This document shows positions 30,301 through 61,600 of a stretch of 64,000 nucleotides of DNA, piece by piece. Positions within the stretch are counted from its first letter, which is position 1; every line of letters starts with the position of its first letter. The position numbers and the translations under genes were made by a program. The stretch comes from Haliotis asinina (Eukaryota > Mollusca > Gastropoda > Lepetellida > Haliotidae): the NCBI RefSeq assembly GCF_037392515.1, contig NC_090291.1:1886501-1950500 (forward strand), in the 5' to 3' direction. The notes below the pieces were generated by a model, which was not told the origin of the DNA, made no database searches, and saw only the letters and a list, made by a program, of their open reading frames with translations.

Positions 30301-33300
30301 GGAGAGCATGAGTCAAGAAAAGTGAAAGTCAATGTTGCTGTTACCATAAAAAATTGTCTTCCCATAAGTGGAGATGACACTTGTCAGTGCCACCATTAAC
30401 AATGACATGAACATGACGAGGGCAGTGCAACACTTACCCCAGTACAAATAGCTTCTGTGGCTGCAGCACAGGCCTCCACTGGGTCGATCTGGTCAGCCCT
30501 ATAGACCAATAGCAGTCAGCATTAGTTGGGTTCAAGATGACCAGCTCATAAAGAACATGATTACACAATACCAAGGAAGTGGTCAAATGTAACATGTTAT
30601 ATTTGAGATTACCCTTTCTTAATAAAGTAGAGATCCCAGTACACTTTGTATTGAGTCCCATCTGGGATTCGAACCCCCACCCTCATAGGCAGGCACCTGA
30701 TTGCCAGCACACAAAGTCTAACCTGCTCAGCGACTGAGACTTCCACAAGTTGCTGACTTTGTGTGCTGGTGATTAGATGCCCGACTCTGAGGGTGTGGGT
30801 TCGAATCCCAGATGAGACTCAACCCAATGAAAGTACAAGAATATGTCAGCCTGATACTCACATGGTGAAGACATGCTGTCGGACGGGTCTTGAGGGGAAG
30901 CTGTCTTTCACAACTGACTGCACACACCTTTAGACAATCAACAACGGCAATCAAGTTTTGTCATTAGCTGAGATTAGAACATTATGTTAAATTCTCAAAT
31001 ACTGACATTCTATTTCAAATCTTCTGACATAATCTGACTTAAGATTTGTTTCTTATTTAATGACGCACTCAGCAGTATTTCAGCTATATGCTGACAGTCT
31101 GTAAATAATTGAACCTGGACCAGATAATACAGTGATCAACAGCAAAGTATTGACCTACACCACTGGCATATGACATGTGGCAACCACATCTTACCACTTC
31201 ATCCCATTAGCAGCCTCCCACAACAAGCATGGTTTGTTAAAGACCAATTCTACCCTGCACCTAACTTTTCAAAGGTGTACAGCCACATGAAGGTGTACAC
31301 ACCATCTGGGGAAAAGGTGTACAGCCAAATGAAGGTGTACACACCATTCGGGGCAAAGGTGTACAGCCACATGAAGGTGTACACACCATCCGGGGCAAAG
31401 GTGTACAGCCACATGAAGGTGTACTCACCATCCGGGGCAAAGGTGTACAGCCACATGAAGGTGTACACACCATCTGGGACAAAGGTGTACAGCCACATGA
31501 AGGTGTACACACCATCTGGGACAACGGTGTACAGCCACATGAAGGTGTACTCACCATCTGGGGCAAAGGTGTACAGCCACATGAAGGTGTACTCACCATC
31601 TGGGGCAAAGGTGTACAGCCACATGAAGGTGTACTCACCATCTGGGGCAAAGGTGTACAGCCACATGAAGGTGTACTCACCATCTGGGACAAAGGTGTAC
31701 CACTACATGAAGTTTTACTCACCATGTTTTACAAAAGTGAACAGCCACATGAAGGTGTACTCACCATCTGTGATACAGGTGTACAGCAAAGGCGGCAGTG
31801 TCAGACAAGGATGCAATGTCAGGGTCCTTCATTCCGTCCAGCCTCTCCCCCAGGGTCATCTTCAGCAGGTCCAGCATGAGAGACTTGGACACAGGAAGCG
31901 GGACACTGAGCCAGGGGAGATAATCCATCAGTACTCATACCCTTAACGTCACATCAAAGTCGGTAAATGCTATTCTCATAATTGTCTTTTTTATAAAATG
32001 AATATACAGAAAATGATAACATATCATGTGGATACACTGACCTGTTCATGATTAGGTACATAACAATAATTTAAATGGAAATTAATATTAAGAATTCCAA
32101 TGATTAACTCATCAACATGATCTTCCAAAAGCATAAAAACAAACTTTTTTTAAAAAAAAATGTTTTTAAGGCACATTTGAAGGAATCAAGGTATGTTGTT
32201 CAAGTTTCGAGTGGCAGTGGCTGATTCTATAGTGTTGCAGCTCTATAACTAAAAGAACGGAAACCAAAGGCCTTTTGTTTGTGTCTTGCGATGACCAATA
32301 TATGTTGATCGGCTGACCTCGATGAAGCATGTTTGGTCACCAACTTGTTGAGGTAGTCAGGAGCAGTTTCACAATAGCACTGGTGGGCCTGACTTAAGAT
32401 TTTGTATTGTGCTCTGGTTCTAATGGGTAACTAGTGTAAGGCTCATAAAACTGGTGAGAAATGATCTCTTTTGGACACTTTGTTGACAATGCAAACTACT
32501 GAGTTTTGTACTCTTTGTAGTTTTGAGATGAGTGTTTCCGGTAATCCACAATAGGCACTGTTGCAATAATCTAACTTCAATAGCACTAACATTGTTAAGG
32601 AACTTCTGATGTTGCTGACATTTCTTAGCTGAAAATAGCAAGCCTTGAAGATATTGTCAATGTGTGTCTTTAAAGTAAGTTCCCAATCTAGGTGAAGTCC
32701 AAGGTCTTTAACACTGTAGAAAAATGGTATGATGGAATTGTATACTTGGATTGCAGTTTCTGTGATTCATGATCAAAATTGTGAGCTACGAACAAGCGAT
32801 GCTTCAGTTTTTCCTTCATTCAATGTCAACATATGAGAATTCATTCAGTTCTTTATATCCATAAGAACAGAATATCTGACATGGCAGCATAAGCAAGGGA
32901 CATCACTGTAGACAGACCTATTCCACATAACTGGTCAACAGTCTAGAACTCATACATACAACTCCTAAAACTAGCTGAACACAATTAAAAATCATTTCGA
33001 TAATGATGTTCAGAAGTTTCAAATAAGTTGAATGATATAAGTTGTTGCTACAAGTTGGAACGTGAGAATGCACCTTTAACAAACACATTATGCCACAAAA
33101 CCCACTTACACGAATCAGCTTTTACGGGCAGTTATATATAACAGTGGCTGTGACCCTTACATCATCAAAATAATGAACTGTCAACAATGAAGCATATCTG
33201 TCAAAATAATTTTCTTTACCATTCTTTATGTTTAAATTATAAATTCTTTAATACACAAAGAATAAATCCTCAAATACATGTATCTATTTGAATGTACAGA

Positions 33301-36300
33301 GCGATGTGTTTGCGTAGGTTATTGCTCTGAGTATAAACCATTGTTAAGTTACCATGGTTACATAAGAACAGTGCAGATCCTCAAGTGTATTTTCAAAAAC
33401 ATATGAAATGTGACAAATTGGGTTAACATGCTACGTGTGAACAGGTGTCACAACAACCACCTGTGTAATTAGTAGTGTATATATGTCAAAATCAGGCATT
33501 GTCAGTTTTGTTTCAAACAGTCTTCAACAGTATTCACCCCAGAGTGGACCTTAAGAACTGTGTCTAGTCCCGGCAACCAGTGTTTGGTCCCAGCAACCAG
33601 TGTCTGGTCCCGGCAACCAGTGTCTGGTTCCAGCAACCAGTTACTGATCTAATGAGCAGCATCCCATCGGTGAGTTGACAGACAGTCAGACTAGCGCCTC
33701 TTACAACAAGCTTAGGTTACCAGCATTTGTAGCTAGGGGCCAGAACATCATAGGCTGCTAACGTTACAACCCGTCGTAATTCTACAGTTTAACATAGGTT
33801 TACAAATGCTGCAGTGCCATGAATGTTTTGTGGATCGGGACCCTGACCAGCATAATTTGCTGGAGAGTAGATCAGTTGCTGGAGACCTGAGCAGCAAGCT
33901 GCTGGAGACCATTTCTAACACAGAATACTCACAGGATAGTATAAGAAAAACACTATGCTCAACATCAACAGAATTAGTGCAGGGGCTTACACAGTGATTC
34001 TCAATGCTCCACTACGTCTTTTAGTTTGAGAAATGCTGAAGAAATGCAAAAAGTCCAATGACTAAATGTAGAGGGTTATGAGATACTTCTTGAAGTGTGG
34101 TCAACAGTAATGCCGCTGTTTGTAGTTAGTGCACATTAACTGGTTGATGTTATCAGCATAAGACAATCACTCCAAGCTATCTCCAAGTTTGTACATAACT
34201 AAGTACAGGCGAACACTGAAGTTAAGTAGGTACTCACACAAGAACCACACAAGAACATGTGGCCCTCTTCACTGACTCTTGTTTTTGTTTTTCTTGTTTT
34301 TTGCCAAACAGAACAACATTACAACTCATGGCAAGTAAGGATACTAGCAACAAATTATGACCCAGATTTTTTCACTGCCACACACAGCAATATGCCAGCT
34401 AAATGAAAACAATCCACCTCAGACCAGACAATCCAGTGACCATTTTGTCAAAAAATATTCATGTTATCAGGCATGACTGAGTGAGTTATTATCATGGAGA
34501 GAGGACACCAGCAATGGGCATCACACACTGTACCCATGTGGAATCAAACCTAGGTCTTTGTCAGAGACTGGATAGGGTGGATTATCATCATGCTTGGAGG
34601 ATTTTACAAGGTGCTTTAATCACCTTTTTGAAGGTGTCAGAGTCATTTCACAGAGTACCCATATCATCCCATATTAACAATTAGATCTGCTGTCTGGGAT
34701 ACACCCATATCATCTCGTATAAATAATCAGATCGGCTGTCTGGGATATACCCATATCCTCCAATGATAAACAATCAGATCGGACATCTTGGATACACCCA
34801 TATCATCCCGTATAAACAATCAGATCGGACATCTTGGATACACCCATATCATCCCATATAAACAATCAGATCGGCTGTCTGGGATACACCCATATCATCC
34901 CGTATAAACAAGCACATCGGCTGTCTGGGATACAACCATATTGTTTCTGACGCGACTACTGTAGTGAAATGCCTCAGTTGTACATACTAGCAACATGGAT
35001 GATGAATGAATTAAAGCTCTGTCATATCCTACTGTGTACAGAGGCCATCACCTTACCCCTTCTCCAAGATGCTCATATTCCATCGGAGATGTGCAGCTAC
35101 TTTCAGAGCCAGGGTTTTCAGAGCCACAACCTTCTTCAGTTGCTTTGCAGGGATCACCTTCATCGCCTCCTCTAGGTTTTCATCTGGAACAAGCAGGGTG
35201 GATAGAAACTGGGCCATTAAGAAAATATCTGCTCCATGCTGATGATACAAGAAGCACAAATCATCAGTTGTGTGGCCATGTTTGTTGTTGTTTGTAATGT
35301 GAATATAAGGGAAGCATGCACACCCAAAATGTCAAAAGTGACCGAGCCTTGTTTCACACCACTTTTAGCAATATTCCATCCACATCATGGTAGAAATACC
35401 AGAAATGTGCTTCATACATTGTACCAATGTGGTGAATCTAACCCAGGCCATAAGCATAAGAAGTTGGTGCTTAACAAACTAGGCTAGCTACATATTTTGG
35501 GATCAGTTTTACAAATTCAGTGGATTTTCAGCTCCGTGTGAGGCATGTTATTCAATGGTTAGTATATTCATATATTACATATTAAGGTGTGCTGACTGAT
35601 ATTTTCATGCATGTTGTCATGAACAAGACTCCTAAATTCCTTTCCAAATTCATAATGTTGGCATATTCCCTTAGAAAACATGTTATGCATTCTCCATGGA
35701 TGTCCCCATTGAACAAAATTATCAGCATGTTAAAAGACCCGTCCTTACTAAGAGGATTAATGCTGAGCCAACTTAAAGATGACTTTGTTAGAAAACAAGA
35801 ATACATAACAACTGGCCATATAAAGTCATTGGTTGGTGGACACAAAGGTTGACAGACTGACAGATATGACTCAAGACTTCATGATATTTACACGTGAGTG
35901 CGGGCTGATTCTTTCCTGGTTCTGTTTTAACATCAGACTGAGCTCCAAATCCTGGCTTGCCATCAACTTGTTGACTTGGTGGACTGGCTTCACGTGTTAA
36001 CAGAACGTTGCGGAACTCAATCTTTGCTTGTTGCATAAATGTCACAAGCAGCTGCACTGGGCTGGGTTCTGAAAATATACAAAAAATTAAGATTGTTTTA
36101 CAGATAAATAAAATGTCAAGCATGTTGAATGGGACAGAAGTCATTGTTCGAATAATCAGCAATGTTTGAACATGTTGAATGTTTAATTTTGAAAGTTTAC
36201 TACTCATTATTGCTGATGATTGCTGAATCAACCTACTCATATTATTGCCTCCTCCCCAGCTGAAGTGAGTACTGAATGTCTTACCAGGTGTTTCCTGCTG

Positions 36301-36414: not shown

Positions 36415-36420
36415 CCTTCT

Positions 36421-38640
36421 CTGGAAAGTGAAAAAGAGTTTCATACTTTCAAGCAGGATGTTATCATGACCGTGTCTGTAATGAAAATGTACATATAGTG
36501 ACTAATATACAGAGTTCTACAACATGTGATATCATGTGAGGTGTCTCTGTTAATCTTATATGACCTATTTTAGAATGGTTCGATCACCATTTTCTGTAAC
36601 TTACATGGTGGCCATGATGAGTTCAATCAAAACTTGAAAATTTGTGTTTAAACTTGAAGGTGATAGAATTCAGCAGAATGTCCAGCTACAAATACAATCC
36701 TTGCTACAAGGCATGGTCTCATATCAAAATTATATATATACTTCCATTATCATGGTCATGTCAAGTGACTGGTTTGATAAATTGGAATTCCCAAGAATAA
36801 ACAATAATGTATGATACATGTATTTCAAAGTATTTTTGCAGAATTGCAAAAAATCAAAGTGTAATTGAAAATTTCAAATCTGTTCTCAAAACATGAGTGT
36901 TTGCCAATTAATTGTGTTCATATTCTGAAGTCTTCCTACTATATCATTGGGGAAGAACATTCTAAACATGCTAAATGTCAAATGACTATTTTGATAGGTA
37001 CTCAGCATTAATCTAGGCACTATTTTAGACTCAAAATTATCATGGAATTCTAACACTATCAGTATATACACAAAATGCAAGCCGCAGTTACATTTTCTTT
37101 GGCTATTAAAACACTTCAAGTCAGACCAAACAATTATGGTGCTCTTTTATAGAATTTTCAACTAGTCTGTTCTAAGTTTTAATATCCTATGCTGATATGG
37201 GAACCTGTCTGTTCAAAACAAACAACAAATTGCTCAGAATTCTTATTACTTCATCAAAACTAATTGATCTATCTTTGCAAAGTATCGTCTATTTTTATGA
37301 TCAGCAAATTATCAAAAGACAAACAAAATTCTAAGAGACCCGACTCATGTTCTATTTTGGGAATATTCCATTCTCCCTTCAGGCCATAGACTGCATGTGC
37401 CAACATTACGAACAAACATGGCTCGCCATTCTTTTATATTCCAAAGCAAGCTGAATTCAACGTTCTGGTGATTTTGATGATTGCATTGCTAGCGCTATAT
37501 CGAAGAAGTATGTGCACGATCGGAGTGCACAAACAGCTTCATTGGTAGGGCGAATGCCAAGTTCCTGTCATGAGACGTTTTATTGACAATTGAAATCAAG
37601 AAATTAAGTTATGTAAAGAGCAAATGAACATCAATATTATTTACCCTTGATCATTAATACTTCAGATGCAAAATCAATTTCCTGTATAACAAAAAATAGC
37701 GAGCAAAATTCAGCAAGATCAGTCGTCTGCTAGTGACAGGTTACATATGAAACAGAAAGCCACATGATCGACACACTCTTTCGCAGTGCGGAGGGAAAAG
37801 TATGGCTCATCGTCGAAAACATATACAAAATACCCATGTGGCAAACGGCTAAAGTTTCGCAGATTTGATGACATCAACGCTATTTTTGCTGGAAACACAT
37901 GATACTTTTGTGTGAAATAGATGAATATACCATTATCACTCAAGATTAGCAAAATCAAAACTTAAAACGATATTAAAGATAAAAATTACGTTTTTGTCTT
38001 ATATTGCCAAAAAACCCTAACACTGGGATACCTTCAAGTGAAACAAATTGGAAACGCGATTGCATTTAAGTGTTGAGATTGCTGTTGTTGCACATAGATT
38101 TCTTATGTTTATTTTAATGGGACTGAGACCTGGAACTGTGCAAGAAACTTTCCATTATATGAACAATAAAGTATTATCTTATTTTGTCTATCTTATGTTC
38201 TCGTGCTCTGGTGTATGTAACACGAAATCTTCACCAATAACAGACCACAGCTTTATCAAATATCATTCTCCTGTGCTGCCAAATTGATGCAAATAATATC
38301 ATAAACAAGTGTTAGTGTTTCTTTTACTGGGGTAGATCTAATACTCACGGAAAACGTTTATTTCATTTTAACTCCTTTGGCGTCATTGGTTCACAGGAAG
38401 TGAAGATTCAATATGTGAAAGTTATACAGCGAAAATTATAATGGATTACACAAACTTTAAATACAATCTCGTCTAAATAAGAGCTTATGCCATGTTCAAT
38501 CAGTATAACAGCAAATCGTCTCTTTTCCTTTTTGTTATTTCCATTATATACACAGCATTTATCAAAATATGCCTTTACCATTCGAAATATCACTTTTTAC
38601 TTAAGTTCATATCTGGTTCTTTCTTTTGCATCCAACCTAA
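36421..38640. other. Spacer between INTS8 and the F-box/UEV gene
   Basis: It holds the INTS8 5' leader intron and the divergent upstream regions of both genes. The INTS8 start exon has a real acceptor (cactttccag, AG at 36,421-36,422), so its first exon must lie here, but I could not place it. The DNA is AT-rich, with no convincing coding frame or repeat family. Confidence 0.4.
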
Positions 38641-38666: not shown

Positions 38667-41600
38667 ATGGCGTCTGAAATGTCAAAACAAGATGAGAACT
38701 CAAGTATGATAGCAGAGTTTCTAAGCACAGAGGTAACCCATTCTATTAGAATTTGACTTTAATACGCACAAACAAGTTTGTTTGGCTCTGTGTAAGGAAG
38801 TGCCAGACAAAATACGAATGCATTATATTTATGTAATCATAGGCTTGGGATATAGAAATCTAGAAAATACCTTTTTTATTATTTCGTAAAACACGAAGGA
38901 AAGAACTTCAGTGACACCATATGTGTGATTCGCGAAAATACAACTTAACGCGCTCCTACTTTACAGCGCATGAATCTACACACTGTTGAATGCCATATCA
39001 CAGTCACGCATATACGTAAATTACGTGTTTGCTTTATACTGAGTAAGAAAAACGGTGCGATAATATGTTATTATATGTTAAAATATGTTCTTCACCTTAT
39101 TTTGTGACCATCTTACCATCTTTACCAATATTCCTTTCCTCTAATTTTCAGGGCTAGGGTTATAGAGTTATTGTTAGCGTTATGTCAGGATTAGGGTTTG
39201 GATTTAGGTTAGCCTTTTCTGCCTGGACTACTGAATATGTGAAAACATTGCCCAAAAATTTTTTGGCAGAAGAATACATATTCTGTCTTTCACAGATTAC
39301 AGCATTCTAAGTTAATCATTCAATTACATGTTTGTTATTATCCATTATACAGCCCGTTCGCTCGCCACGCTGAAGACCCGGGTTCGATTCCCCATATGGG
39401 TACAATGTGTGAAGCCCATTTTCTGGTGTCCCCAGCCGTGATATTGCTGGAATATTGCTAAAAGCGGCGTAAAACTAAACTCACTCACTCCATCATACAG
39501 CCAGAATCCAGTATTATTATCGGGTGTGCCGGTCAAGTCGCCCCAGTGACAAAACGCCCCAGCAAATTTGGTCAAATCGCCCCAGATATTTGGTCAAATC
39601 GCCCCAGGTTTGGTCAAATCGCCCCAGGGGGGTAGTCAAAACGCCCCAGTTTATTCAAAATGGTTTGATATATGCCATAAATGCATGGTTTTGTCAACTT
39701 CCATGCTATATTCTTCACATAATATTATGTGTTGTATTATTAGTAATATCCCAGGTAACACCGTAATACCAGTTATTTGGCAAAGAATTACAATCTGTAT
39801 AAAACTTCCATGTTACAGCCTTCACATAATACTATGTAGTAATGTTTGTGATAAATATTTAACTAGTAAACTGATAACAGCAAAAGTAATATTCATGGAT
39901 AGACAGCACTTATAACACCAATTATTTGCATGTTATCTATGCTTTTGTTAATTACAAGAATTAAATGAAAGGCTTGTATAGAATGTTTTTTTGGCCGTAA
40001 ATGTACAGTTTTTATCAGCAAGTATGGGACTAAATACATATCAAAACAATCTACAGGTGCTCTTGTCAAAAATAGGTTTTCTCAACAAGTATAGTATAAT
40101 ACTTATGAAAACAATTTGTTGGGTTGTTTTTCAATTACTCTTGTCAAAAAGTGAGGCCGTAAATTCATAGGTTTGGTCAACAAGTATGGTATAATACTTA
40201 TCAAAACAAGAGTCATCAGAAGTTGACATATCCCCCCGGCCCCCACATGTTTGAGAGGACAAATAATCTGAGAGTTACTCATTGTGTTTTAGACTAAGTT
40301 TGAATTGTTTCCATGGAATTCATGAAAATTATAAATGCCATACATCTGTAACCAGCAAAGTCACAATTTCAAGATCTGTCTCATATATCTGCTGATCTGT
40401 TGAAAGATATGAAATGGTTTTCAAGTTCTGCTCCGGAAACAAAGCCCATCCCTCCATTTAGAGACTAAGAAAAACAAAAAAAATATAAATACCAAAAATT
40501 CTGTAAATAGCAAAAGGCACAACTATAGGCTGAGATAACTACCTCTATCATGTTTGGTCTAAAAATATTGAACGGTTTCTGAGTTATGCTCCGGACAGGA
40601 CAGGTTCCCCTATACCCTTTACATGCACCATCTGCAAAGAGACACCGAGGGAAAGCAGTCCCATAGACCACTCATTTCAGATTGTAATTCTTTACCAAAT
40701 AATTGGTAATATGGTGTTACCTAGGCATGGGATATTGCTAATAATACAACACATAATATTATGTGAAGAATATAGCATGGAAGTTGACAAAACCATGCAT
40801 TTATGGCATATATCAAACCATTTTGAATAAACTGGGGCATTTTGACTACCCCCCTGGGGTGATTTGACCAAACCTGGGGCGATTTGACCAAATATCTGGG
40901 GCGATTTGACCAAATTTGCTGGGGCGTTTTGTCACTGGGGCGTTTTGTCGCTGGGGCGATTTGACTGGCACCCTTATTATCATGTCATATATTATAAAAC
41001 AGAATGAAAGACGGTGTAGGTCATATGTTTCAATATTTAGTTTCAGTAGAATGCTAGTGTTTATCTTCAGTTACTAAAATTAGCTGTTGAAATATTTCAG
41101 TATGACAAGTGCATGATGTGTGATGGCTTTTATGGGTGTAACTTTGGTCAGCCAGTGTGCAGTACCTGTCACCTGTTCCTGTTTTCTGTGGACATCAACA
41201 AGGGAGACGGAGAGGCTGAGGTGTACACTGAGGTCAGTTAAACATACCCGAAGTCCATGGAGACCTAATATGAAATGGATGAGCATCTTGAATACTTTTA
41301 CGATAGGGATGTCTAAAAAGAGATTCCAGTTTATCCATTGTTAATCTTTACATTTTGGAAACATGCAATATCATAAAGTTTATTACACTCAGCACTGTAT
41401 TTGTGCATTCACCTTTTCTTATATTGTTGGCAATAAATAAATCACAAACATATTAAAACATAAACCCTTTTACTGACAACTGTAGTATTGTTACAAATGC
41501 TATGAATTGATCACAAACAGGCAAATAAGACAAGACATGTTATAATAGGTCATCTTTCCAGATTATTCTACAATGTGTTTATTCTGTACTTGTTACATCA

Positions 41601-44600
41601 TGTTAAATGACTTGGGTCAAACTACCCTGGACTTCAAGTTGAGAATCTAGGATCTCAGCAATCAGTACAGGTACTAAGATGAAACGACATGAACCATATA
41701 TTCCGATTTGATGACTTGTTGATTGCATGTTTTCAAATTCCAGTAAGCAGGATAAAGATAAATCAATGCTGATATCAGTCACTGGACCATGTGTTCTAGG
41801 GACAGTTATTTACAAACTGCTATCATTTAGCTTGATTATTATGGCGTGTTGACATGGTAAACAAACAAAAATGGTTTCTTGTCAGCTTCTTAGTCTGTCA
41901 AACAGACCCTAAAGCAAATCTATCCAAGAAAGCCCATGCAAGTTTAGAAAATATGGCAAGTCTAGATTTCCTTAGCTTCAGGGTCTGTACCAATCTGCTG
42001 AATTCATAGCTAGCTCATGGTTAGTAATTATCAGTTGATCAGTAGCATGTCAGTAATGGGTGATAAGAATCTTTGCACGAGTAGAGAAATTCCAAGAAAT
42101 TATTGCTCTGCAGATTTGTTTAGTCTCTCTGCAGATTTGTTAAGTCTCTGAAAATTAAGAAAGTCTCAGGGCTGAATTTCATTATATTATTTTCTTATTT
42201 ACAATGAACTTTTCAGTAAAATATGTTCATTTCAGAGACTAGTTGTTAGTCTATCAGCTTCTCTGTTGACCAACCTAAAGTTTGTGTTAATGTTTTGTGC
42301 CAGTTGAAATTGTGTTGAAAGTAACACAAGTATTTATAAACTCCAGAAGGCAGATTCAGATGACTCTGGTAATGAGGAACCAGGGGCTGAGGCTGACTTC
42401 TACCCTAAACAGGAACCAGTGATGAAGACGTACAAGTCATCCTTTAGCTGTAAGATGGACAAACTTGCTGAGAGGATACAAACTCTAACCCTACCAAGAG
42501 AAAGAGATGACAATGTCCCAGATGGACTTGTGGATTCACTGCCTCCAGAGGGTAACTCATATTTATCTTGCCTTTTATCTGTGGTATGTATTGTAAGACT
42601 GTTTTCAACATTTTATATCTGCAGTGAAAACATGGGAGCAGTTAGTCCAGTGCTTTTTGCTCAGAAAATTCAAATACATTGTATTGATGTAATTAATAAA
42701 GAGTGAAAAAGGTACTAATAATTGACCATATTCAAGAACAAATCAGCAGCTACACGTAGCAGCGTTGCATCCTCTTAACTCTAAGCTTGAGAGGTAACCT
42801 TCTTTATCTCTGGTACTGAGGTTTTACAATTACTGTCAACATTGTCCAGCAATATCGGGATACCAACTAATACAAAAGCATATTCTTGAAGACAAAGAAC
42901 TGCTTGATTAATGGAATTCCTCTGAAAATGGTGCAGGCATTCTTTGTATTTGGCATAACCCTTGCTGTGGCTAGGACTATACGAACATGGCTAGGTTTGT
43001 GTGAAAGAATGGACAGCTCAGATAAGAACTGCATATTTAGATATGAACAGGTCTGTACATTGTACATTTTGCCTGCAGTGTTGCTGGTTGTGTTCAGCCA
43101 CCTGGATGACATTTCGCTGTGGACAGCGGGCAGTGTGTGTTCAAGATGGAAGGAGATACTGGAAGGGGAGACAACTGAGGCCCAGTGGCAAACATTCATA
43201 CGATTGCGATGGCCTCTGTTTCAGCCTCAGTATAAAGTCAATTGCTGGAAAACCATATACACAAAACTGTAAGTTGTGTGTCGTCATGTGTTGCTAGTCT
43301 GTAAACATGGTTATGTATGTTTGCATGTGCTAAATACCTCCATTTTGTAGCCATTGTTCTTGAAGAGGGGTTACTTTGTGTCTGTTTCAGGTTAGAGAGT
43401 TCCCCATGTCGATACTGTCTAGAAAGCATGATGTTGCAGGTATGCCTACATCTCTTGCACTTTTTCACAAGTCATAATGTTGGGCTTGTCTAAAAATCTG
43501 GTCTGGTCCTGGTAGTTTGTGCACTGTACACATCCAAGCAGTAGCATATAATTTAATGAAATTATTTTGTCATTGTCAAGTGTGTTTATCTGCATAAGGT
43601 TGATTCTAAACAAAGGCATTTTTTTTTTGCCAAAGTTTTATTTGTCGAACCATTTTGTGTTTTGAAGTAATCCACTGCTTTGATGTTTCAGATAAGATAT
43701 GACTTAATGATCTAATGATGTATTAGAAGCGAGTGTCGGTTCTGTATGTTGCTAAGAGAGGCATTTCATCAGCCAAGTTTTTTATGATTTGCTCCAACAT
43801 GTCAAAAAGCTCTTCTTAATTCCCAAGACACATACTCACTAATCCACTGCAAATATTTGGCATTCTTACCCTGGTTACAGAGTACTCCACCTATAGAGGA
43901 GAATTCATGGCGTCACCGTCGACTGCGCAGTGAGCTGAAGACACTAAAGACAGACCCACCTGAGGGAATACAGGCCACCCCTCTAGACCGGCATTGTTGC
44001 CACTGGCAGGCCTCTATCACCGGCCCCCAGGGCAGTCCATATGAGGGAGGAATCTTTCTTCTGTATCTCCAGATACCACAAAGGTAGGTTACCATCTTGC
44101 CCCCGTATCTCCAGATACCACAAAGGTAGGTCATTTTCTTGCTCCTGCATCTCCAGATACCACAAAGGTAGGTCATTTTCTTGCCCCTGTATCTCCAGAT
44201 ACCACAAAGGTAGGTCGCCACCTTGTCGGTGTATCTCCAGATAGCAAAGAGGTAGGTCTGCCATCTTGCCCCTGTATCTCCAGATACCACAAAGGTAGGT
44301 CACCCTCTTGCCCCTGTATCTTCAGATACCACAAAGGTAGGTCTCCTATCTTGCCCCTGTATCTTCAGATACCACAAAGGTAGGTCACCACCTTGTCCGT
44401 GTATCTCCAGATAGCACAGAGGTAGGTCTCCCATCTTGCCCCAGTATCTCCAGATATCACAGAGATAGGTCTCCCATCTTGCCCCTGTATCTTCAGATAC
44501 CACAAAGGTAGGTCATTTTCTTGCTCCTGTATCTCCAGATACCACAAAGGTAGGTCATTTTCTTGCCCCTGTATCTTCAGATACCACAAAGGTAGGTCAC

Positions 44601-45228
44601 CATCTTGCCCCTGTATCTCCAGATACCACAAAGGTAGGTCACCATCTTGCCCCTGTATCTCCAGATACCACAAAGGTAGGTCACCATCTTGTCCCTGTAT
44701 GTTCAGATACCACAAAGGTAGGTCACCATCTTGCCCCTGTATCTCCAGATACCACAAAGGTAGGTCACCATCTTGCCCCTGTATGTTCAGATGCCACAAA
44801 GGTAGGTCACCATCTTGCCCCTGTATGTTCAGATACCACAAAGGTAGGTCACCATCTTGCCCCTGTATGTTCAGATACCACAAAAGTAGATTCAAAGCCT
44901 CTTGTACTTTCTTTGCAGTTATCCCATGCGCCCACCCAAAGTCCGATTCATCACAAAGATATTTCACCCAAACATCAGTCGCCATGGAGATGTAGGTTTA
45001 GACTCAATACATCACAACTGGAGTCTAGCTCTGACAATTTCCAAAGTGCTGATTAGCATCCAGTCACTGCTGACAGACCCCTACTGTGCAATCTGCATGG
45101 AGCCTCGCATTGGTAGACTGTATCAACACAACAGGGCAGAGTTCGACAGGATAGCCAGGCTATGGACATGGAAGTACGCCATGCATGACTTTCTCATGCC
45201 AATGAACATCAACCTAAAGGGAGTGTGA
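38667..45228 (+). CDS. CxxC/F-box/E2-variant (UEV) fusion protein, seven exons
   Basis: Exons: 38667-38732, 41101-41232, 42347-42551, 43079-43268, 43391-43439, 43881-44083, 44919-45228. All have GT/AG edges and join in phase to 384 residues. Order: a short Ser-rich start; C26-x2-C29 and C42-x2-C45, a likely zinc site; an acidic linker; an F-box at about 131-165 (LPPEVLLVVFSHLDD, SVCSRWKEI) that should bind Skp1; then a UBC fold at about 222-371. The UBC part follows UBE2D closely: HWQASITGPQGSPYEGG, YPMRPPKVRF, FHPN (297-300), LALTISKVLISIQSLLTDP, FDRIARLWTWKYAM. Where UBE2D has its catalytic ICLD cysteine this protein reads VGLD (G308), so it should not form a ubiquitin thioester. It is inferred to be a non-catalytic E2 variant tied to an SCF-type ligase. 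A minisatellite of its own splice donor follows exon 6. I know no characterised homologue. Confidence 0.88.
39345..39492 (+). repeat. SINE-1 copy in F-box/UEV intron 1
   Basis: A well-kept copy: gacccgggttcgattcccc (B box), gtgtgaagcccattttctgg, then gatattgctggaatattgc and the tail aaaactaaactcactcactc. It ends 30 bases before the TIR element. Confidence 0.85.
39522..40973. mobile_element. 1452-bp TIR element with 8-bp target duplication
   Basis: The ends are gggtgtgccggtcaagtcg and, inverted, cgatttgactggcaccc. The terminal inverted repeats run about 250 bases and include a sub-repeat of cgccccag separated by tttggtcaaat. The exact 8-bp duplication TTATTATC flanks it (39514-39521 and 40974-40981). 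An 8-bp duplication fits hAT, P or Merlin-like superfamilies. The interior (about 950 bases) shows no transposase, so it is non-autonomous. Intron 1 of the F-box/UEV gene. Confidence 0.88.
44063..44890. repeat. Minisatellite of F-box/UEV exon 6 donor, 42-bp unit, about 20 copies
   Basis: The unit is gtatctccagataccacaaa plus ggtaggtcaccatcttgcccct. The first unit is the real exon end (ccacaaag|gtaggt, donor at 44084). Nearly every later unit keeps the exon-like sequence and an intact gtaggt donor. The array fills the whole exon 6-exon 7 intron up to the acceptor region. Unit length is 14 codons; in the exon frame each unit reads agg-tag, so a stop follows the first donor at once. Antisense open frames across it are not genes. 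Confidence 0.95.
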
Positions 45229-45610
45229 CACATGGCAGCCAGTGGTGTATCTGTTACCATGACTACCAGATATAGCTAATGAACATCAGCATACGGGTTG
45301 TGATACCTGGCAAGTTGTGGTTTAAGTGTTGCCATGACTACCAAGTGTAGCAAATGAACATCAATGTAGGGAATGTGATGCCTGGCAACCTGTGATGTAT
45401 ATGTTACCATGGCTACCTGGAGTAGCCAGGGAACATAAGCTGAAGTAAACTTCATGTATGTTTTACCATACAGGTGTAGCTATTACTGAGAAGCCAGTGA
45501 TGTGGGATGAATCAGTTACCATGGTTACTTAGTATTCTTCATGAACATCAACCCAAAGGTGAATCATGAAGCAGAGCAATATATGACCATCTGAAATATA
45601 TTGGTAACCA
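45201..45610 (+). repeat. Tandem repeat of the F-box/UEV coding end into its 3' UTR
   Basis: Blocks starting aatgaacatca recur at 45,201 (coding), 45,278 and 45,353, with degenerate forms near 45,427 and 45,540. Each is followed by an agtgtgacacatggcagcc-like segment and gttaccatggctacc. The unit is about 75 bases with 15-25% divergence. The first unit holds the last codons and the stop; the others are 3' UTR. Confidence 0.65.
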
Positions 45611-45931: not shown

Positions 45932-48900
45932 ATGAAGACAGACAGCATGTAGTTATGGTGTGTGTTTAACATCATGGGTACACAGTCAGTGAGTATTTCA
46001 GATGAAGACAGACAGCATGTAGTTATGGTGTGTGTTTAACATCATGGGTACACAGTCAGTGAGTATTTCAGATGAAGACAGACAGCATGTAGTTATGGTC
46101 TGTGTTTAACATCATGGGTACACAGTCAGTGAGTATTTCAGATGAAGACAGACAGCATGTAGTTATGGTGTGTGTTTAACATCATGGGTACACAGTCAGT
46201 GAGTATTTCAGATGAAGACAGACAGCATGTAGTTATGGTGTGTGTTTAACATCATGGGTACACAGTCAGTGAGTATTTCAGATGAAGACAGACAGCATGT
46301 AGTTATGGTGTGTGTTTAACATCATGGGTACACAGTCAGTGAGTATTTCAGATGAAGACAGACAGCATGTAGTTATGGTGTGTGTTTAACATCATGGGTA
46401 CACAGTCAGTGAGTATTTCAGATGAAGACAGACAGCATGTAGTTATGGTCTGTGTTTAACATCATGGGTACACAGTCAGTGAGTATTTCAGATGAAGACA
46501 GACAGCATGTAGTTATGGTCTGTGTTTAACATCATGGGTACACAGTCAGTGAGTATTTCAGATGAAGACAGACAGCATGTAGTTATGGTGTGTGTTTAAC
46601 ATCATGGGTACACAGTCAGTGAGTATTTCAGATGAAGACAGACAGCATGTAGTTATGGTGTGTGTTTAACATCATGGGTACACAGTCAGTGAGTATTTCA
46701 GATGAAGACAGACAGCATGTAGTTATGGTGTGTGTTTAACATCATGGGTACACAGTCAGTGAGTATTTCAGATGAAGACAGACAGCATGTAGTTATGGTC
46801 TGTGTTTAACATCATGGGTACACAGTCAGTGAGTATTTCAGATGAAGACAGACAGCATGTAGTTATGGTGTGTGTTTAACATCATGGGTACACAGTCAGT
46901 GAGTATTTCAGATGAAGACAGACAGCATGTAGTTATGGTGTGTGTTTAACATCATGGGTACACAGTCAGTGAGTGTTTCAGATGAAGACAGACAGCATGT
47001 AGTTATGGTGTGTGTTTAACATCATGGGTACACAGTCAGTGAGTGTTTCAGATGAAGACAGACAGCATGTAGTTATGGTCTGTGTTTAAAATCATGGGTA
47101 CACAGTCAGTGAGTGTTTCAGATGAAGACAGACAGCATGTAGTTATGGTGTGTGTTTAACATCATGGGTACACAGTCAGTGAGTATTTCAGATGAAGACA
47201 GACAGCATGTAGTTATGGTGTGTGTTTAACATCATGGGTACACAGTCAGTGAGTGTTTCAGATGAAGACAGACAGCATGTAGTTATGGTGTGTGTTTAAC
47301 ATCATGGGTACACAGTCAGTGAGTGTTTCAGATGAAGACAGACAGCATGTAGTTATGGTCTGTGTTTAAAATCATGGGTACACAGTCAGTGAGTGTTTCA
47401 GATGAAGACAGACAGCATGTAGTTATGGTCTGTGTTTAACATCATGGGTACACAGTCAGTGAGTATTTCAGATGAAGACAGACAGCATGTAGTTATGGTC
47501 TGTGTTTAACATCATGAGTACACAGTCAGTGAGTATTTCAGATGAAGACAGACAGCATGTAGTTATGGTCTGTGTTTAAAGGTCACATGCAACGTAAAAC
47601 ACAACTTTGCAGATTCTTGTACCTTTCGGTATGCATTTACCGAAACAAATCATAAAAAATGCCAATTCAGCCTATAAAGTTGAAAAAAACGCGATGAAAA
47701 AAAAGCCCGCGAAATCGGAGTTCAAACGTTTCACTAAATTCCCCCCAGCACTGGGGGGAAAACTGGTTCCAACAGATGTGCTGCGCTGCGCCCGCGACGC
47801 ATGCGCAGTTAATAGGTTCGCGGAGCTTGAAACAGTATGTATGCCCAGCGTCTGAGGTTGTGAGCAGTAGTCTAATCTTGGTTGTGTACACAAACAAGTA
47901 AATAATCTACTCGTTACGTAAAAAAACTTGTTGATTGTGGTAAGCAGTCTCTGTCACAGAGAAAGCTCAGTGTCTGGTTTATTCACACCTATATGTCTAC
48001 CTGCCTGTCTGCTAAAGACAACATGCAATACACAGCTTCAATCATTGACCACGTGCAATTTGAACTTAACACCTATCAGACTATACGACATAAAGAAAAT
48101 AAGTTGATTTATGACTCGTGCACCCGAGTCCCGTGTCTGCCACATTATGTAATTAGGCACGTGTGATACACATGTCATGTTTTTATGTCTGTGGGTTGCA
48201 AACATACTACTTTCATTTTTTTCGGATGACTGGATCTGACGGAAACTGGTGCAAACTCTTGTCAGTTTCAAGTCCTGCTTTGTACTTGGACGAATGACAG
48301 ATTCCAGTAGTTTATCATCTCTACTGAAATGATTTTTGATTGGATCGAGCGCAAATTCGGAGAACATGTATTTTCCAAACCCAACATCTCTACATTCTTC
48401 ATGGATAACGGCTTCTTTTAGGGTATATGATTTTGTTTGACAACAGTATATGAATCCATACTGAAACGACGCATCAAGTACACAAAAAGAAGTTGTTATC
48501 CATACAGAATCTTACTTTCTTGTGACCGGCTATGCTTCTAAAATGCCCATCAAACAGATCATCTTTCTGTACACACAATGAACCCTTAGCATATCAGCAA
48601 ATGAAACAGCCAATCGGAAGCCGTCGTTACACTTGAGTGCATATCCACCAGCTATGACTGGGTTCGGTCTCCCGAGGGCTTCGTTTCGGGGGAAGTAAGC
48701 CCAAGTACAAAATAAGGCACTTTTCAATCGCGATTGTACGCTTGTAATTTGTTTATTTCTTTTTTTAAAAGAAGCAATGTATATTGTATGTCATGAATAA
48801 GTGATACATGTGTTTTAATTATGTTTGATTTTTTGGTTGCATGTGACCTTTAACATCATGGGTACACAGTCAGTGAGTATTTCAGATGAAGACAGACAGC

Positions 48901-49097
48901 ATGTAGTTATGGTGTGTGTTTAACATCATGGGTACACAGTCAGTGAGTATTTCAGATGAAGACAGACAGCATGTAGTTATGGTGTGTGTTTAACATCATG
49001 GGTACACAGTCAGTGAGTATTTCAGATGAAGACAGACAGCATGTAGTTATGGTGTGTGTTTAACATCATGGGTACACAGTCAGTGAGTATTTCAGAT
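45932..49097. repeat. 70-bp satellite array, about 27 monomers, split by an insertion
   Basis: The monomer starts gatgaagacagacagcatgt and goes on through agttatggtgtgtgtttaac and atcatgggtacacagtcag. About 23.5 monomers lie before the 1270-bp insertion and about 3.5 after it, together one whole-number array. Monomers differ at a few sites (ggtg/ggtc, gagta/gagtg, taac/taaa). A monomer carrying taaa plus gagtg occurs twice exactly 280 bases apart (47,081 and 47,361), showing four-monomer block duplication. It lies 0.7 kb past the F-box/UEV stop. Confidence 0.95.
47580..48849. mobile_element. 1270-bp TTAA-flanked TIR element inserted in the satellite
   Basis: The ends are aggtcacatgcaac and its exact inverse gttgcatgtgacct, flanked by TTAA on both sides (47576-47579 and 48850-48853). 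Removing the element restores a perfect satellite monomer. TTAA targeting suggests a piggyBac-like or Kolobok-like mover. The interior is AT-rich with no recognisable transposase; short open frames (for example 47607-47855) match nothing I know. Non-autonomous. Confidence 0.88.
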
Positions 49098-55285: not shown

Positions 55286-55352
<67 letters not shown>

Positions 55353-55353
55353 T
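55283..55353. repeat. (ATTT)n microsatellite
   Basis: About 18 tandem TTTA/ATTT tetramers. It creates a low-complexity open frame that is not a gene. Confidence 0.95.
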
Positions 55354-55642
55354 CAAATATATTTAAATATTTAATTATTAATGACAGTAGGTTACCGCCA
55401 CCCCTCCACTTCCCACCACATCCAACGGCATTGTTTCTTCCAGTTGTAGACGTTTTTATCTAACGCAGTTCGAGATAGTGTCGAGTTTCTCTACATCACT
55501 TCCCTCTAATTACCTACAAGGAAACCAGAGCCCGTGTCTCCATCAGTCCCACAGCTGGTCGGGGGGACAACCCGTGCTTGCTGGGCTTGACAATGAGTAT
55601 TGTAGACCTGTAGGTACGGGAGTTGGGAGACACTTGTTGACA

Positions 55643-58600
55643 ATGCGGTGTTTTTTCTTCCTGATTGTCGGATTAGGAACGTGTCAGTACTCACAGGCGG
55701 ATTATGGAGACGAAGCTGTAGATGTAAGTTGAAATATTCAGTAAGGATTTAGGTAAGGTGTTCTGCTTAACAATAAGGATTAAGTTAAGGTGGTCTCTGC
55801 TTAACAAGAATACAAGACACCATAACTTACCCTGCATAGTGGAGTTTTACAGCGGATTTAGTAATATTCCAGCAATATCCCTTCGGATCAAACCAGAATT
55901 GGGCTTGAAAATTCAAACCCTGTATCCATGTGGGGAATCGATCCGGGTCTTCGGCGTGACGAGCGAACGCTTCAACCACAAGTCTACCCTATTGCCTCAT
56001 GTTTAGTGGACACAGCACACAGGCTGTAGACATAAGTTTGAAGGGTGAATATATAATGGCCCATGGTCAGAGCAGAAGGTGACTCAGAATTACAGAATAT
56101 ATATTTCCACGTTATACACTCTATCCAGAGCTGCGCTGTGTCATGACTGTTACCCAACTGTTACTGAAAAAACAACAGTTATTAATTCTATGAAAGCATT
56201 TGACAATAATGTACCGCCGTAGATATCAATGACTGCGACTAAAAGCAACATCATCAAACATGATTAATAATATTATGCAGTGAAGGAAATGTAGCTTAAA
56301 GTCGAGGTCATGCTTGTTGCATTTATGCAGTAATGTATGTGTGGTACCTTCTACTAGCCATAGCCGGTGGGGTAGCCTAGTGGTTAAAGCGTACCCTCGT
56401 CACGCCGAAGACCCGGGTTCCATTCCCTACACGGGTACAATGTGTGAAGCCCATTTCTAGGTTCCCCGCTGTGATATTGATTACAAATTATTGCGAAATA
56501 TGCTGACTTCTTCGAATCAACGAAGCCTTGTATATCCCCCTAATGCCGTGCGTAAGGACGGGAAACAACCTATCGACGAGGACGCGTTTTGGTATAACCT
56601 ACGCTACCAGGAATCGGAACCTAATCTGGCAGCAGCCACTAGACCCTTTTGAATTATACAGACAGACAGATAGGTAATGTGAAGAACGCGTTAAGCAGTC
56701 CTGGTAGAATTTTGCCAATTGTTCTGAAAACTGTACCCATGGAGTTTCCTTGTTTCGCGGACAATATACTGTGTTCATGTGTTCCCCCTTCAACACAGTC
56801 CCGCTTCAGGAAATACTCATTTCTTCTCCGGGAAGCCATTACTGGATCAAGTTACTACCAAAGAGATGTCAGCTAACTGCGCATTTCAGTTGCAAGTTAA
56901 GTAAGGCTGTAGATGGTTTACATACACAGGGCGGCACAACAGGTGCTTGGAGATGTTTACAACTGACATGTGTTTCTTTCTCAAACAAACGTGACGTCCA
57001 CGTGATAACCCAGACTATTTATCCTTCTAGGAACCGTGTTGGCCTTTACGGGAAGTGTTTGTGTACCAGAAACCTTACTTAATTTGTTTCAACAAAGTGT
57101 GCAGTTTCCGCTAAAGATTATGAGACCATGTGCAAAATATGGACATTGCAAGTCTTTGAGAAATGGCTGACAGTATTGTTGCATGTATGTCCTAAAAAGC
57201 TATTTTGTATACTATCGCTACATCTGTTTTCCATTTCTTATATTTTGGAATCATGAACTGTTAACATCTGTCTCAGACGTACACGTTGCCATTTAAAAGC
57301 CTACATGAAGTAAACGTCTTTGTCCAAGGACGTGCATTTGTTTTTCTGTAAACATATGATAGGATGGAGACCCAGCTGTTCTACACTATTATTTGATAGG
57401 CTGACGGTGCATGGCTGAATGGGTGGATGGTATTTAATGCCTTATAGTCTAGATACATCCCAAGGGAGTGTAAGTATTGGGCACTGGGAAGACAATGCTC
57501 TGTTAGAAACGTTCTCTGTAGAGTACCATGCTCAGTGTTGGGAAATGAGTGAGTGAGTGAGTGAGTGAGTGAGTGAGTGAGTGAGTGAGTGAGTGAGTGA
57601 GTGAGTGAGTGAGTGAGTGAGTGAGTGAGGCGGCGGTTGTGAAATATTCACATTTTGCTGTAGACTCTTGGTCTGATTTTGTAACTTGGCATATATAACA
57701 CAAAGGTTTAAGGCTATATAAATATTAACGATGTCATCTCACTAAGGAAAAATTTCGCAGCAACTACATCCAAGTATGGAAACTATTCCACAAATACCCT
57801 GCATGGATACGCAGATCCACCAAAGCATCAGAGGCTATGACAAGAGACACATTTACATTGGCTTGTTTGTAGGGCAGCACGACCGGGCCGCTGTTCCAGC
57901 TGACAGGGGCCGATAACCTCCCTCCCCACAGCAGCCCCTTCGTGTACTGGCCAGACCAGCAACACAATGAAGGTACGTCATTCCGTGGGGTAATATGTTT
58001 CCCCCCACCTTCAGGACAAAAAATAATAATAAATAATAATAATGTCCCATAGTGATGACGTCAAACCTGTCTGTCGTCTTAAAAATCAATATAATGTATA
58101 CCGGTTTCTTCGACAGTCTTGAGTGAAATTTGAAGTGGAACGTGAGGAGAAATGCGTTTAAATGTCAAATTCGACACATGTGTTATGTACTGTGTGGGGT
58201 TTGTGAGTGAGTGAGTGAGTGCGTCACGCGCGTGATTGGTGGGACGCATCTTGGCCTTATCCACAGAAATGTCTGCTTCATAGGGACATCGCTGAAGAAC
58301 CACCAGGCAGTTCAATACAGGTTATCACGCAAGTGTGTTTTGGGATGGTTAATATCCTATATTGGGAATAAACATTGTTTTTAGCGAGCCTTGGCGAGCT
58401 AAATACAGAGTGTTTATTCCTAATGCAGGATATGATATTAACCATCCCAAAACATACGAGTGTGATAACCTATTTATTTATACAATGTCATTCTTACTTT
58501 AAAATTTAAAAAGAATGTGATTTCATTTGTCACAGATCATGAAACTAAACTTCCTGCGATGTGCCCGTATATCTATGACTATTATTATGTTATTATAGTA

Positions 58601-61600
58601 TGACATGGATACTTTCCACTTACATACGGTACACTGACTACTCTCACTCACAAATAGGTGTCAGGCTCGAAGCCGCATTTCAAAAATAACTATTGCCGTG
58701 AAGGCCACATTTCAATTACATGGATGTAGTCGGTAAAGCCACATGTCCAGACCTTGTTTTGTACCCTACATACCTAGCCCCACAATCTGAATCAACAAGT
58801 ACCACACTGTATGTTTGATGTGATTGTGGTTCAAATAATACCTGATGAGAATGTACAGGTTCGGAATATATTCTACACGATACTGTCACAGCTAAACATG
58901 GTTAGTTCAGATGTGACGGATTCTCTGTTGAACGCGCCATATTCTTTTGTTGTTGTGAATTATGTGTCGAACATTAGGATTAATCGAACATTGATTAATC
59001 GACACAGCGGTGTTAAAGTATGGTCGTCTATCACGGGTTTGTCTGGCCCAGATCGGATTTTTTGCAGGCCTACGTCATATAGTTGGAACATTACTCCGTG
59101 TTTTGTTTTCAAACAAGTCAACTGTACATACTGTGTATATGTATTTTAACAGAAGAAAACAACATTCTGAACCCGTTCTTTGATGAGTGTGTGGAGGAGA
59201 GAAACACGTGTGACCAGGTGTGCTACAGGGCGGGGCCGGACACACAGATCTGTGACTGCTATCAGGGCTTCTCACTCATGTTGGACGGAGAGTCGTGTAG
59301 AGGTGGGTACCCGGTAGGAACTCCGCAGGTGCATGTGTGACGAGAATAAGAGTGATAAGATAACTCTGTCAGATCAGCCGTGTTCCAATATAAGCGTTAG
59401 TGGGTGACTGATGTGTTATTACAACAGACACTGAGGTATTTGATCTATTCTATGATAAAGTCTGATGTCCAATTTACGGTCATTCTCTAAGCCCGTTATC
59501 TGCAATGGTTAGCTCTATTGTCTAAAGGAGCAGTAATTATAACCTGCATAGCAGTTACATGCTTTAGTCGTACCAGGATTCGCAGGTTTCCCCTCAGTGG
59601 TTGCCTGGGCCTGTCTATGTTCATTATGTTCACCACTCTGGCAATCAAGGATGACGTCGCGCGTTCCTAACGTTCCCAGCGCTGTCGTCCTGGTAAGTTT
59701 CACAGCCCTGAATCATATTATTTTCCCCACTGCTAAAACGCTAAAGAAGCAAATCTGTATTTCCTCAGGCTCTCTGGTATCCTGAGGACTCCTTTTCAAT
59801 TTAAATGGGATTATTTGTTGCTATCAAAGTTATGATCCCTGAAACACGAGGTGAGAACTCATTCGCCCACTGGGAATAAAACAAGTTAAAGGTCTGGTGG
59901 TGTCAGGAACGTAAACTGAGGTGGCATAGCACTACGACTGTAAAAACTGTCAAAGTATGGGGAGTTCGATTAACACTGATATGCCCTCGTGAGATGAGGC
60001 CCTGGTCATGTACCAATAGCATCCGTATAGATTAACGTTCATCTGGCATCCAGTCATTCTGAGTCTGCTCGAGAGTCGTATAATACTTTGTGTCCTGTAC
60101 AAACACAGATGTGGACGAATGTGAGGACGGCTACTGTGGTCAGTACGGTCAGTGTGTCAACACCATGGGCTCCTTCATCTGTACCTGTGAACCCGGCTTC
60201 TACCTCAACAACGACAACTTGTGTACAGGTAACGACAACTTGTGTATAGGAAACGACAATCTGTGAAAGGTAACGTCTTGTGTAGGTAAAGAAAAGTTGT
60301 GTACAGGTAACGACAACTTGTGTCTAAACAACACCTTCTGTACTGATAACAACTTGTGTTTTAGCAACACCCTGTGTACAAGTAATGACAACTGGTGTCT
60401 GTAGCAACACCTTGTGTACAGATAACGACAACCTGCATACAGGTCACAATTAACACATTGTCTACAGGTTATGGCAACATGTGTACAAATAACGAAATCT
60501 TGTGTGCAAGAAACAACCCCTTGTGTACAGGTAACCGAGAGTATTACGGGTTAGAACAGATCCCGACAGCCTAGATGCTGGTTGTAAGAGTGTGTTTGAA
60601 TGAATGAGTGGTTACGCTCGTACACCCAAAGTGTGGATCGTTGTTCATAATATCAATCACCAGGTGTTCCAGACAGGACTTCCGAGATATCGCTGACATT
60701 ATACCGACACTGTCAAAGTGTGTTTGTATGGCAAAATGTCAACGCGTCCATATGTTTCTATGGCAAGATGTCAACGTATCCACGTGTTTGTATAGAAAGA
60801 TGCCAACGTGTACATGTGTTTGTATAAAAAGATGCCAACGTGTTCATGTGTGTCTGCATGGCACGATGTCAGGTGTTGAAAGATGTTAACGTGTCCTTGC
60901 GTTGGTGTTGAAAGATGTTAACGTGTCCATGTGTTGGTGTTGACAGATATAGATGAGTGTATGGACATAGGCCTCTGTGTCGGGGAGTCCCAGTGTCACA
61001 ACCTGCTGGGGTCCTACCAGTGTGCCTGTCCCCCGGGATTCCAATATACGAGTGACGGATGTGCAGGTGATGTCTTCACTTCATCACTCATTTCACCGGT
61101 TTCAGTTGTCTATCGTCCAACTGAATTTTACTATGCTTGATTTCATTACATTACATCTGTTATAACTGTCTGCGTTCTGTGTAGTTCATTGGTAAACACA
61201 CTTTTGAAAAAGCTAATATTATGTACAAATTCTCAGGTGTATGTGTTGAGGATATGCGTGTTACGCTGACGTCAACTTTTCGTATCTGACCTGCTGATGT
61301 TGTTGGAATGATCATACTTTTGTTGTGAATTTTACAGACGTAGATGAATGTGTAACCTCTCCTTGTGCTGTCGGCGGCGTCTGTAACAACACTGTGGGCA
61401 GCTTCCTCTGTTCCTGTAGGAGGGGTTACTATAACAACGGCACACACTGTCTTGGTGAAAAAAAATCCCACTCTTTTTGTTGTTGTTTATACAGAGAATC
61501 TCACCCAAGTGTGTACTGACACCAAATATATCAACACGAGTTGATAAAGTAACAAATATTTTACCTTTATTAACGAGTGTTGATATAATTGATATCACGA

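What the first reader, a model, noticed from the sequence alone, without database searches (positions are those of the whole stretch)
31271..60946. Several minisatellites in one window are built from exon edges and splice sites
At three separate genes or exons (31.3-31.8 kb, 44.1-44.9 kb, 60.2-60.5 kb) the repeat unit consists of the exon's last ~15-25 bases, the 5' splice site and ~20 intron bases. A fourth (60.7-60.95 kb) abuts a 3' splice site. Two of them share a 42-bp unit length. Ordinary minisatellites should land at random in introns, so this clustering suggests a process that prefers exon-intron borders. Possible causes are repair of R-loop or pausing breaks, template switching, or selection-tolerated slippage at conserved anchors. 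I know of no named mechanism.
Basis: partly seen in the sequence, partly recalled or inferred. Interest (0 to 1): 0.75.

Follow-up and report, generated by a model that had tools for sequence, protein, structure and literature searches.

The report
Repeats grown across gene splice borders
In this snail-like genome several short DNA repeat arrays really do copy the edge of an exon with its splice signal over and over; this is a known but little-studied phenomenon, called mirages in lancelets, and ordinary repeat growth that the gene tolerates explains it better than a special border-seeking process.

Summary
Three arrays (31270-31787, 44061-44889, 60210-60535) begin 23, 23 and 19 bases inside an exon, and their units carry the 5' splice site. 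Protein homology supports the exon end strongly for two (an E2-like UBC gene, a calcium-binding EGF exon) and moderately for the third (INTS8). A fourth array ends on a 3' splice site, more weakly. A fifth, not in the finding (45201-45426), starts 25 bases before a stop codon, where there is no splice site.

A further clear case lies on another chromosome (RGS22, L014, 111-bp units).

A border-preferring process is not established. Over the listed parts of the 1.14-Gb genome, tandem copies of two 5' splice-site words, counted as array clusters, exceed reversed-word controls only 1.3 and 1.75 fold after correction for word abundance (combined z about 2.2). Random placement within the window predicts about 0.4-0.7 such arrays against 3 seen, in a window picked for this oddity. 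In three cases the intron is mostly array. My best explanation is ordinary tandem duplication at short introns, tolerated because the first copy keeps the exon and donor intact.

The parts
31270..31787 (-). Array 1: 42 bp x 12.3; the first copy in gene orientation is the last 23 bp of an INTS8-like exon (exon ends at 31765), then the donor GTGAGT. 12 of 12 full copies keep GT; 7 GTGAGT, 5 GTGTGT.
31765..31947 (-). INTS8-like exon (5' end approximate), ends ...YHR + TG; the split codon would read W, as in INTS8, if the next exon, not found, starts with G
   Evidence: weak homology; none when searched alone
44061..44889 (+). Array 2: 42-43 bp x about 20; first copy = last 23 bp of exon; 19 of 20 copies keep GT, 18 of 20 keep GTAGGT
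44084..44918 (+). Intron of the UBC-like gene, 835 bp, of which 806 bp are the array
43901..44083 (+). UBC-like exon (5' end approximate), profile positions 1-55
44919..45228 (+). UBC-like last coding exon with stop codon TGA at 45226-45228
45201..45426 (+). Array 5 (not in the finding): 75 bp x 3; first copy = last 25 bp of coding sequence + stop codon + 3' flank
60210..60535 (+). Array 3: irregular ~21 bp unit (AACGACAACTTGTGTACAG|GT), first copy = last 19 bp of a cbEGF exon
60229..60946 (+). Intron between two cbEGF exons, 718 bp; arrays 3 and 4 cover about three quarters of it
60719..60948 (+). Array 4: ~32 bp unit, two sub-arrays, ends at the 3' splice site of the next cbEGF exon

Best explanation
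These are mirage-type minisatellites. An ordinary small tandem duplication happened to span an exon-intron border and then grew by slippage or unequal exchange. The gene tolerates it because the 5'-most copy still holds the intact exon end and donor site, and all further copies lie in the intron (at array 5, in the 3' flank of the coding sequence). Short introns make it likely that a 20-110 bp duplication touches an edge, so no border-seeking machinery is required. Shown: exon edges, units, copy counts, a recurrence elsewhere in the genome, one array at a stop codon. Inferred: the duplication/slippage history, use of the first donor in mRNA, near-neutrality.
For: Exon ends fixed by homology at arrays 2 and 3, and supported more weakly at array 1. 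A further case in RGS22 outside the window (exon E 1.5e-25; three GAG|GTAAGT copies at 6884, 6995, 7106). The border need not be a splice site: array 5 spans a stop codon. Introns are mostly array: 806 of 835 bp (UBC), about three quarters of 718 bp (EGF), and in RGS22 about 240 of 336 bp by the coordinates. Downstream donors look like passive copies: in array 2 donor columns 0.977 vs 0.923 for the rest, block rank 4 of 42; in array 1 0.954 vs 0.934. In arrays 1-3, reading past the first donor meets an in-frame stop in the first unit (1, 2) or by the third (3), so only the first donor can give the full protein. Genome-wide placement is close to word abundance.
Against: No RNA was available, so use of the first donor is unproven. 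The RGS22 exon's own frame stays open just past the second donor, so a 37-residue extension is possible there. INTS8 homology at array 1 is weak (none for the exon alone), its next exon was not found and the size of that intron is unknown.
Confidence: 0.71

Rival explanations
1. A mutational process prefers exon-intron borders (for example R-loop or pausing breaks at donors, repaired by template switching), so arrays nucleate at donors more often than elsewhere.
For: 3 of 30 window arrays vs 0.36-0.72 expected; CAGGTGAGT clusters 60 vs 17 reversed where 2.02:1 is expected, P 0.024; both words combined z 2.15.
Against: CAGGTAAGT shows no significant excess (19 vs 12 against 1.18:1, P 0.27); 5 of 63 units outside the window vs 2.9 expected at 8 bits, 6 vs 5.9 at 7 bits; an array at a stop codon needs no donor; gene-rich DNA may simply hold more arrays; the window was selected.
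Confidence: 0.17
2. The arrays are intron births or extensions by the Rogers route: a tandem duplication carrying AG/GT created new splice sites and the array itself is the new intron.
For: In the UBC gene 806 of 835 intron bases are array; removing the repeats leaves only about 29 bp plus one unit's 19 bp. Amphioxus authors proposed intron gain from mirages.
Against: Units of arrays 1 and 2 hold about 19 bp that are not exon sequence, so an intron start was already there. The genome's other UBC matches do not settle whether this position is old.
Confidence: 0.05
3. The repeated donors have a function, for example regulated or stepwise splicing, or a transcript-lowering decoy.
For: Donor GT kept in 19 of 20 and 12 of 12 copies; by eye each unit also has a CAG 0-11 bases before its donor; decoy use in arrays 1-3 would bring a stop codon.
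Against: Donor columns are hardly more conserved than the rest of the unit, as expected for young copies; five of 12 array-1 copies have GTGTGT; array 3 copies are badly eroded (sequence printed).
Confidence: 0.04
4. Chance similarity or assembly artefact.
For: Array 4's match to the exon start is weak; array 1's exon has only weak protein homology.
Against: First copies of arrays 2 and 3 are the exon ends themselves, fixed by protein homology; copies of arrays 1 and 2 diverge from each other, unlike a simple duplication artefact.
Confidence: 0.03

Closest known systems
Mirages of amphioxus (Adh3, globin BflGb6/BflGb9, PGBD5 and other genes)
   Same: Minisatellite-like tandem duplications that span an exon-intron border, many units with AG/GT signals, at 5' or 3' borders, unit lengths of 10-160 bp; lancelet globin RT-PCR and Adh3 data suggest normal splicing (passages of PMC3087553; passages of PMC3902484). 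The original 2002 Adh paper was not held.
Intron gain by tandem genomic duplication (Rogers model, recalled; potato RdRp case PMC4974935, search listing and start of abstract only)
   Same: Tandem duplication changes gene structure around an intron.
   Different: There the duplication makes a new intron; here an existing intron's start is part of the unit and the exon is unchanged.
Internal tandem repeats at exon-intron borders of human duplicated genes (PMC2812944, passages)
   Same: Variable tandem repeats at exon-intron borders that can alter introns.
   Different: Human recent segmental duplicates; at least half of the variable repeats modify coding sequence.
Ordinary abalone intron minisatellite (TSSK1-like intron 3, 27-bp unit; PMC6905558, passages)
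   Same: Gastropod intron minisatellite, length-polymorphic between individuals.
   Different: The passages do not say that it spans a splice site.

Membership tests
Mirage (amphioxus-type border minisatellite) | Tandem minisatellite inside a gene | tested here: met
Mirage (amphioxus-type border minisatellite) | Repeat unit spans an exon-intron border with splice signals | tested here: met
   Arrays 2 and 3 and RGS22 firmly; array 1 with weaker homology; the acceptor array 4 is weak
Mirage (amphioxus-type border minisatellite) | Unit length within the 10-160 bp reported | tested here: met
   about 21, 32, 42, 42 and 111 bp vs 10-160 bp
Mirage (amphioxus-type border minisatellite) | Inner units homogenised, edge units left out | tested here: inconclusive
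   In array 2 the last copy is the most diverged (0.69 to copy 1) but identity does not fall with distance; in array 1 the second copy is the most diverged of the full ones
Mirage (amphioxus-type border minisatellite) | Normal splicing of the mRNA despite the repeats | not testable with these tools
   No RNA; homology across the junction is only indirect
Mirage (amphioxus-type border minisatellite) | Length polymorphism, germline or somatic | not testable with these tools
   One assembly only
Intron gained by tandem duplication of exon sequence (Rogers) | Duplicated unit made of exon sequence only (as I recall the model) | tested here: not met
   Units of arrays 1 and 2 have about 19 bp of non-exon sequence

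The most novel reading that the evidence does not exclude
Gastropod genomes of this kind carry mirages genome-wide, at hundreds to thousands of genes, with true donors seeded 2-3 times more often than background DNA, so that short introns lengthen from the exon edge outward. This would be a general route of intron growth, shared by lancelets and molluscs, with a real though modest border preference.
Probability: 0.22. Interest if true: 0.6.

Novelty: new member of a known kind. Interest (0 to 1): 0.38.

Why it matters
Such an array can put up to about 20 near-identical donor sites in one intron, a natural experiment on how the spliceosome picks a donor. They also give a visible route by which introns lengthen from the exon edge. 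The papers I saw describe these structures in lancelets; several in 64 kb of another phylum suggests a general phenomenon that can now be counted in annotated genomes.

Tried and rejected

A motif-pair count as proof of enrichment was rejected. Raw pair counts (317 vs 101; 743 vs 111) are inflated by large single arrays, for CAGGTAAGT those at C2:71.63 Mb and C5:0.55 Mb, so clusters were counted instead. Only parts of the genome were listed in the outputs.

A GATA-finger hit next to an array (L007:9273-9746) looked like another exon-edge case but falls in the array's own repeated translation. Scanning 20 of the 213 ORFs found beside sampled arrays gave otherwise only mobile-element domains (L025, L011, L030) and one match below cut-off (L021), so no further exon-edge case; cases were surely missed. 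Two more ORFs beside donor-like arrays (L014:2684-3004, L018:5644-5877) had no Pfam match, the first no PDB match either. Helical-turn periodicity of unit lengths was considered and dropped by eye from the period list.

The first fixed 42-bp slicing of array 2 was wrong because copies 5, 7, 9 and 10 have 43 bases; one search replaces it. The placement model used 31 periods typed by hand; one search redoes it with the 30 arrays, and those numbers are given here. A check of the INTS8 exon on its own found nothing, which lowered my trust in array 1's exon and my confidence from 0.72 to 0.71, and raised the chance/artefact rival from 0.02 to 0.03.
Full report
What is there. The tandem-repeat finder reports all four arrays of the finding. 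Exon ends were judged by protein homology, not by motif alone. For array 2 (44061-44889) the upstream exon matches Pfam UQ_con to profile position 55 and the downstream exon resumes at 53. The spliced protein aligns without gaps to UBE2D2 over 145 residues, and the splice sites are 44083|44084 and 44918|44919. For array 3 (60210-60535) the exon is a calcium-binding EGF domain, and it splices in frame to the next EGF exon. For array 1 (31270-31787, minus strand) support is weaker. In a joined query the whole match to INTS8 has E 3.1e-9, but that rests on the preceding exon (residues 45-102); the exon at the array follows in order at INTS8 105-152 with an i-Evalue of only 15, and alone it finds nothing at E <= 10. 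Its last base is 31765, before GTGAGT; the W of the conserved YxRW is completed by a next exon that I did not find. So 23, 23 and 19 bases of the three arrays lie inside the exon. Array 4 (60719-60948) ends two bases inside the next EGF exon; its unit resembles the acceptor only loosely. A fifth array that is not in the finding, 45201-45426 (75 bp x 3), starts 25 bases before the stop codon of the UBC-like gene and takes in the stop codon.

The copies. In array 2 about 20 copies of 42-43 bp keep GT in 19 of 20 and GTAGGT in 18 of 20; the donor columns are 0.977 conserved against 0.923 for the rest, rank 4 of 42 circular blocks. In array 1, 12 of 12 full copies keep GT, 7 with GTGAGT and 5 with GTGTGT; donor columns 0.954, rest 0.934. 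This is what young passive copies would show; it neither proves nor excludes use. Reading on past the first donor meets a stop codon inside the donor itself in arrays 1 and 2, and by the third unit in array 3. In the RGS22 array described below the exon's own frame instead stays open until just past the second donor.

Elsewhere in the genome. The window lies in a 1.14-Gb assembly, 16 of whose contigs are chromosome-sized; that this is an abalone such as Haliotis asinina is my recall of its chromosome number, not a tool result. I obtained 25 other 10-kb loci (17 at round positions, 8 at random positions) plus the window's left flank. Among 93 arrays of period 12-150 in these and the window (two longer-period arrays were left out), 6 of 30 window units and 5 of 63 other units contain a donor scoring 8 bits or more, against 1.6 and 2.9 in random segments of equal length; at 7, 6, 5 and 4 bits the others give 6, 11, 16 and 20 against 5.9, 9.0, 14.8 and 21.2 (the weight matrix was recalled). 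One of the five outside is a clear border array: L014, where three GAG|GTAAGT copies, 111 bp apart (6884, 6995, 7106), start in the last ~40 bases of an exon that lies within a match to RGS22 with E 1.5e-25. Of the other four, L011 and L027 show no open frame upstream, and ORFs beside L014:2879 and L018:5765 have no Pfam match. One more likely case comes from position lists alone, and was noticed by eye: a CAGGTGAGT array of eight listed pairs (24-bp steps) at C9:52562968-52563216 begins 57 bases after the end of an EGF_CA exon match on the same strand. Its DNA was not read.

Is there a border preference? I used pattern searches of the whole genome with the reversed word as control. CAGGTAAGT occurs 12478 times vs 10565 for its reverse, and as close pairs 317 vs 101. 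CAGGTGAGT occurs 12862 vs 6369 times, pairs 743 vs 111. Large arrays dominate the pair counts, so I counted clusters in the listed parts of the genome (positions typed by hand, merged within 30 kb). CAGGTAAGT, C1-C4, gap 23 left out: 19 vs 12, expected ratio 1.18, P 0.27. CAGGTGAGT: all gaps to C2:51.8 Mb, 29 vs 10, P 0.21; gaps 11-22 to C10:45.8 Mb, 37 vs 10, P 0.054; union 60 vs 17, expected ratio 2.02, P 0.024, ratio of ratios 1.75 (95% interval 1.01-3.19). Together 79 seen vs 68.3 expected, z 2.15. If the surplus of each word over its reverse is taken as true donors, donors are hit 2.5 (CAGGTGAGT union) to 3.2 times (CAGGTAAGT) as often as background, 1.9 in the smallest span, with wide error. 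Reversed words are an imperfect control, because words differ in how prone they are to lie in repeats and because genes may hold more arrays. None of the window's three donors matches either word exactly, so the test sees only part of the phenomenon. Within the window, random placement of the 30 arrays with their unit lengths predicts 0.36-0.72 donor-spanning arrays for an assumed 20-40 donors; three were seen, in a window singled out for this feature.

Mechanism. The simplest account is that tandem duplications arise anywhere. One that lies wholly in an exon changes the protein and is mostly lost, but one that overlaps the exon's end leaves the first copy as a complete exon end and donor, and everything downstream is intron. 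The same logic covers the stop-codon array, which has no splice site. In the three cases with both ends known, the intron is mostly array: 806 of 835 bp (UBC), about three quarters of 718 bp (EGF, arrays at both ends) and about 240 of 336 bp (RGS22; coordinates). In short introns a unit of 20-110 bp will often touch an edge. The growth step (slippage, unequal exchange) and the use of the first donor in mRNA are inferred.

Literature. [quoted passage not shown] PMC3087553 says that how they arise is unclear and that its RT-PCR and the Adh3 data suggest normal splicing. Its authors propose mirages as a source of new introns. I saw no report of mirages in a mollusc in these searches, which cover open-licence papers only and of which I saw listings and passages. 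The finding is therefore a new member of a known kind, with weak evidence for a preference that only an annotated whole-genome count can settle.

Noticed in passing
45201-45426: 75-bp x 3 array whose unit starts 25 bp before the UBC-like gene's stop codon and takes in the stop codon and 3' flank; a border array without a splice site.
   Followed up: partly
42871-45228: A gene that may join an F-box-like exon to an E2 (UBE2D-like) domain; at the catalytic cysteine position (recalled as C85; the aligned PDB chain is itself changed there) it has glycine, so it is probably an inactive E2 variant.
   Followed up: partly
1318-2532 and 8429-9604: Two very similar long open frames of 404 and 391 residues (von Willebrand A-like by eye), a recent tandem duplicate pair.
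   Followed up: no
45932-47579 and 48849-49097: The same 70-bp unit forms two arrays about 1.3 kb apart, as if one array had been split by an insertion.
   Followed up: no
39550-39649 and 40832-40963: Two arrays of the same ~20-bp unit in opposite orientation about 1.2 kb apart, perhaps the ends of a mobile element.
   Followed up: no
G000 C14:52176838-52193323: 31 EGF_CA matches with the same score (39.3 bits), many spaced roughly 450-530 bp: a very recent tandem expansion of an EGF exon.
   Followed up: no
L025:1678-5406: Single 1243-residue open frame with Rho_N and endonuclease VII domains, likely of a mobile element.
   Followed up: no
G000 C9:52562968-52563216: 24-bp-step array of CAGGTGAGT beginning 57 bp after an EGF_CA exon match on the same strand, a probable further border array; DNA not read.
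   Followed up: partly
units of arrays 1-3 and L014:6878-7122: Each unit has a CAG 0-11 bases before its donor, so each copy looks like an acceptor, a tiny exon and a donor in a row; seen by eye, untested.
   Followed up: no
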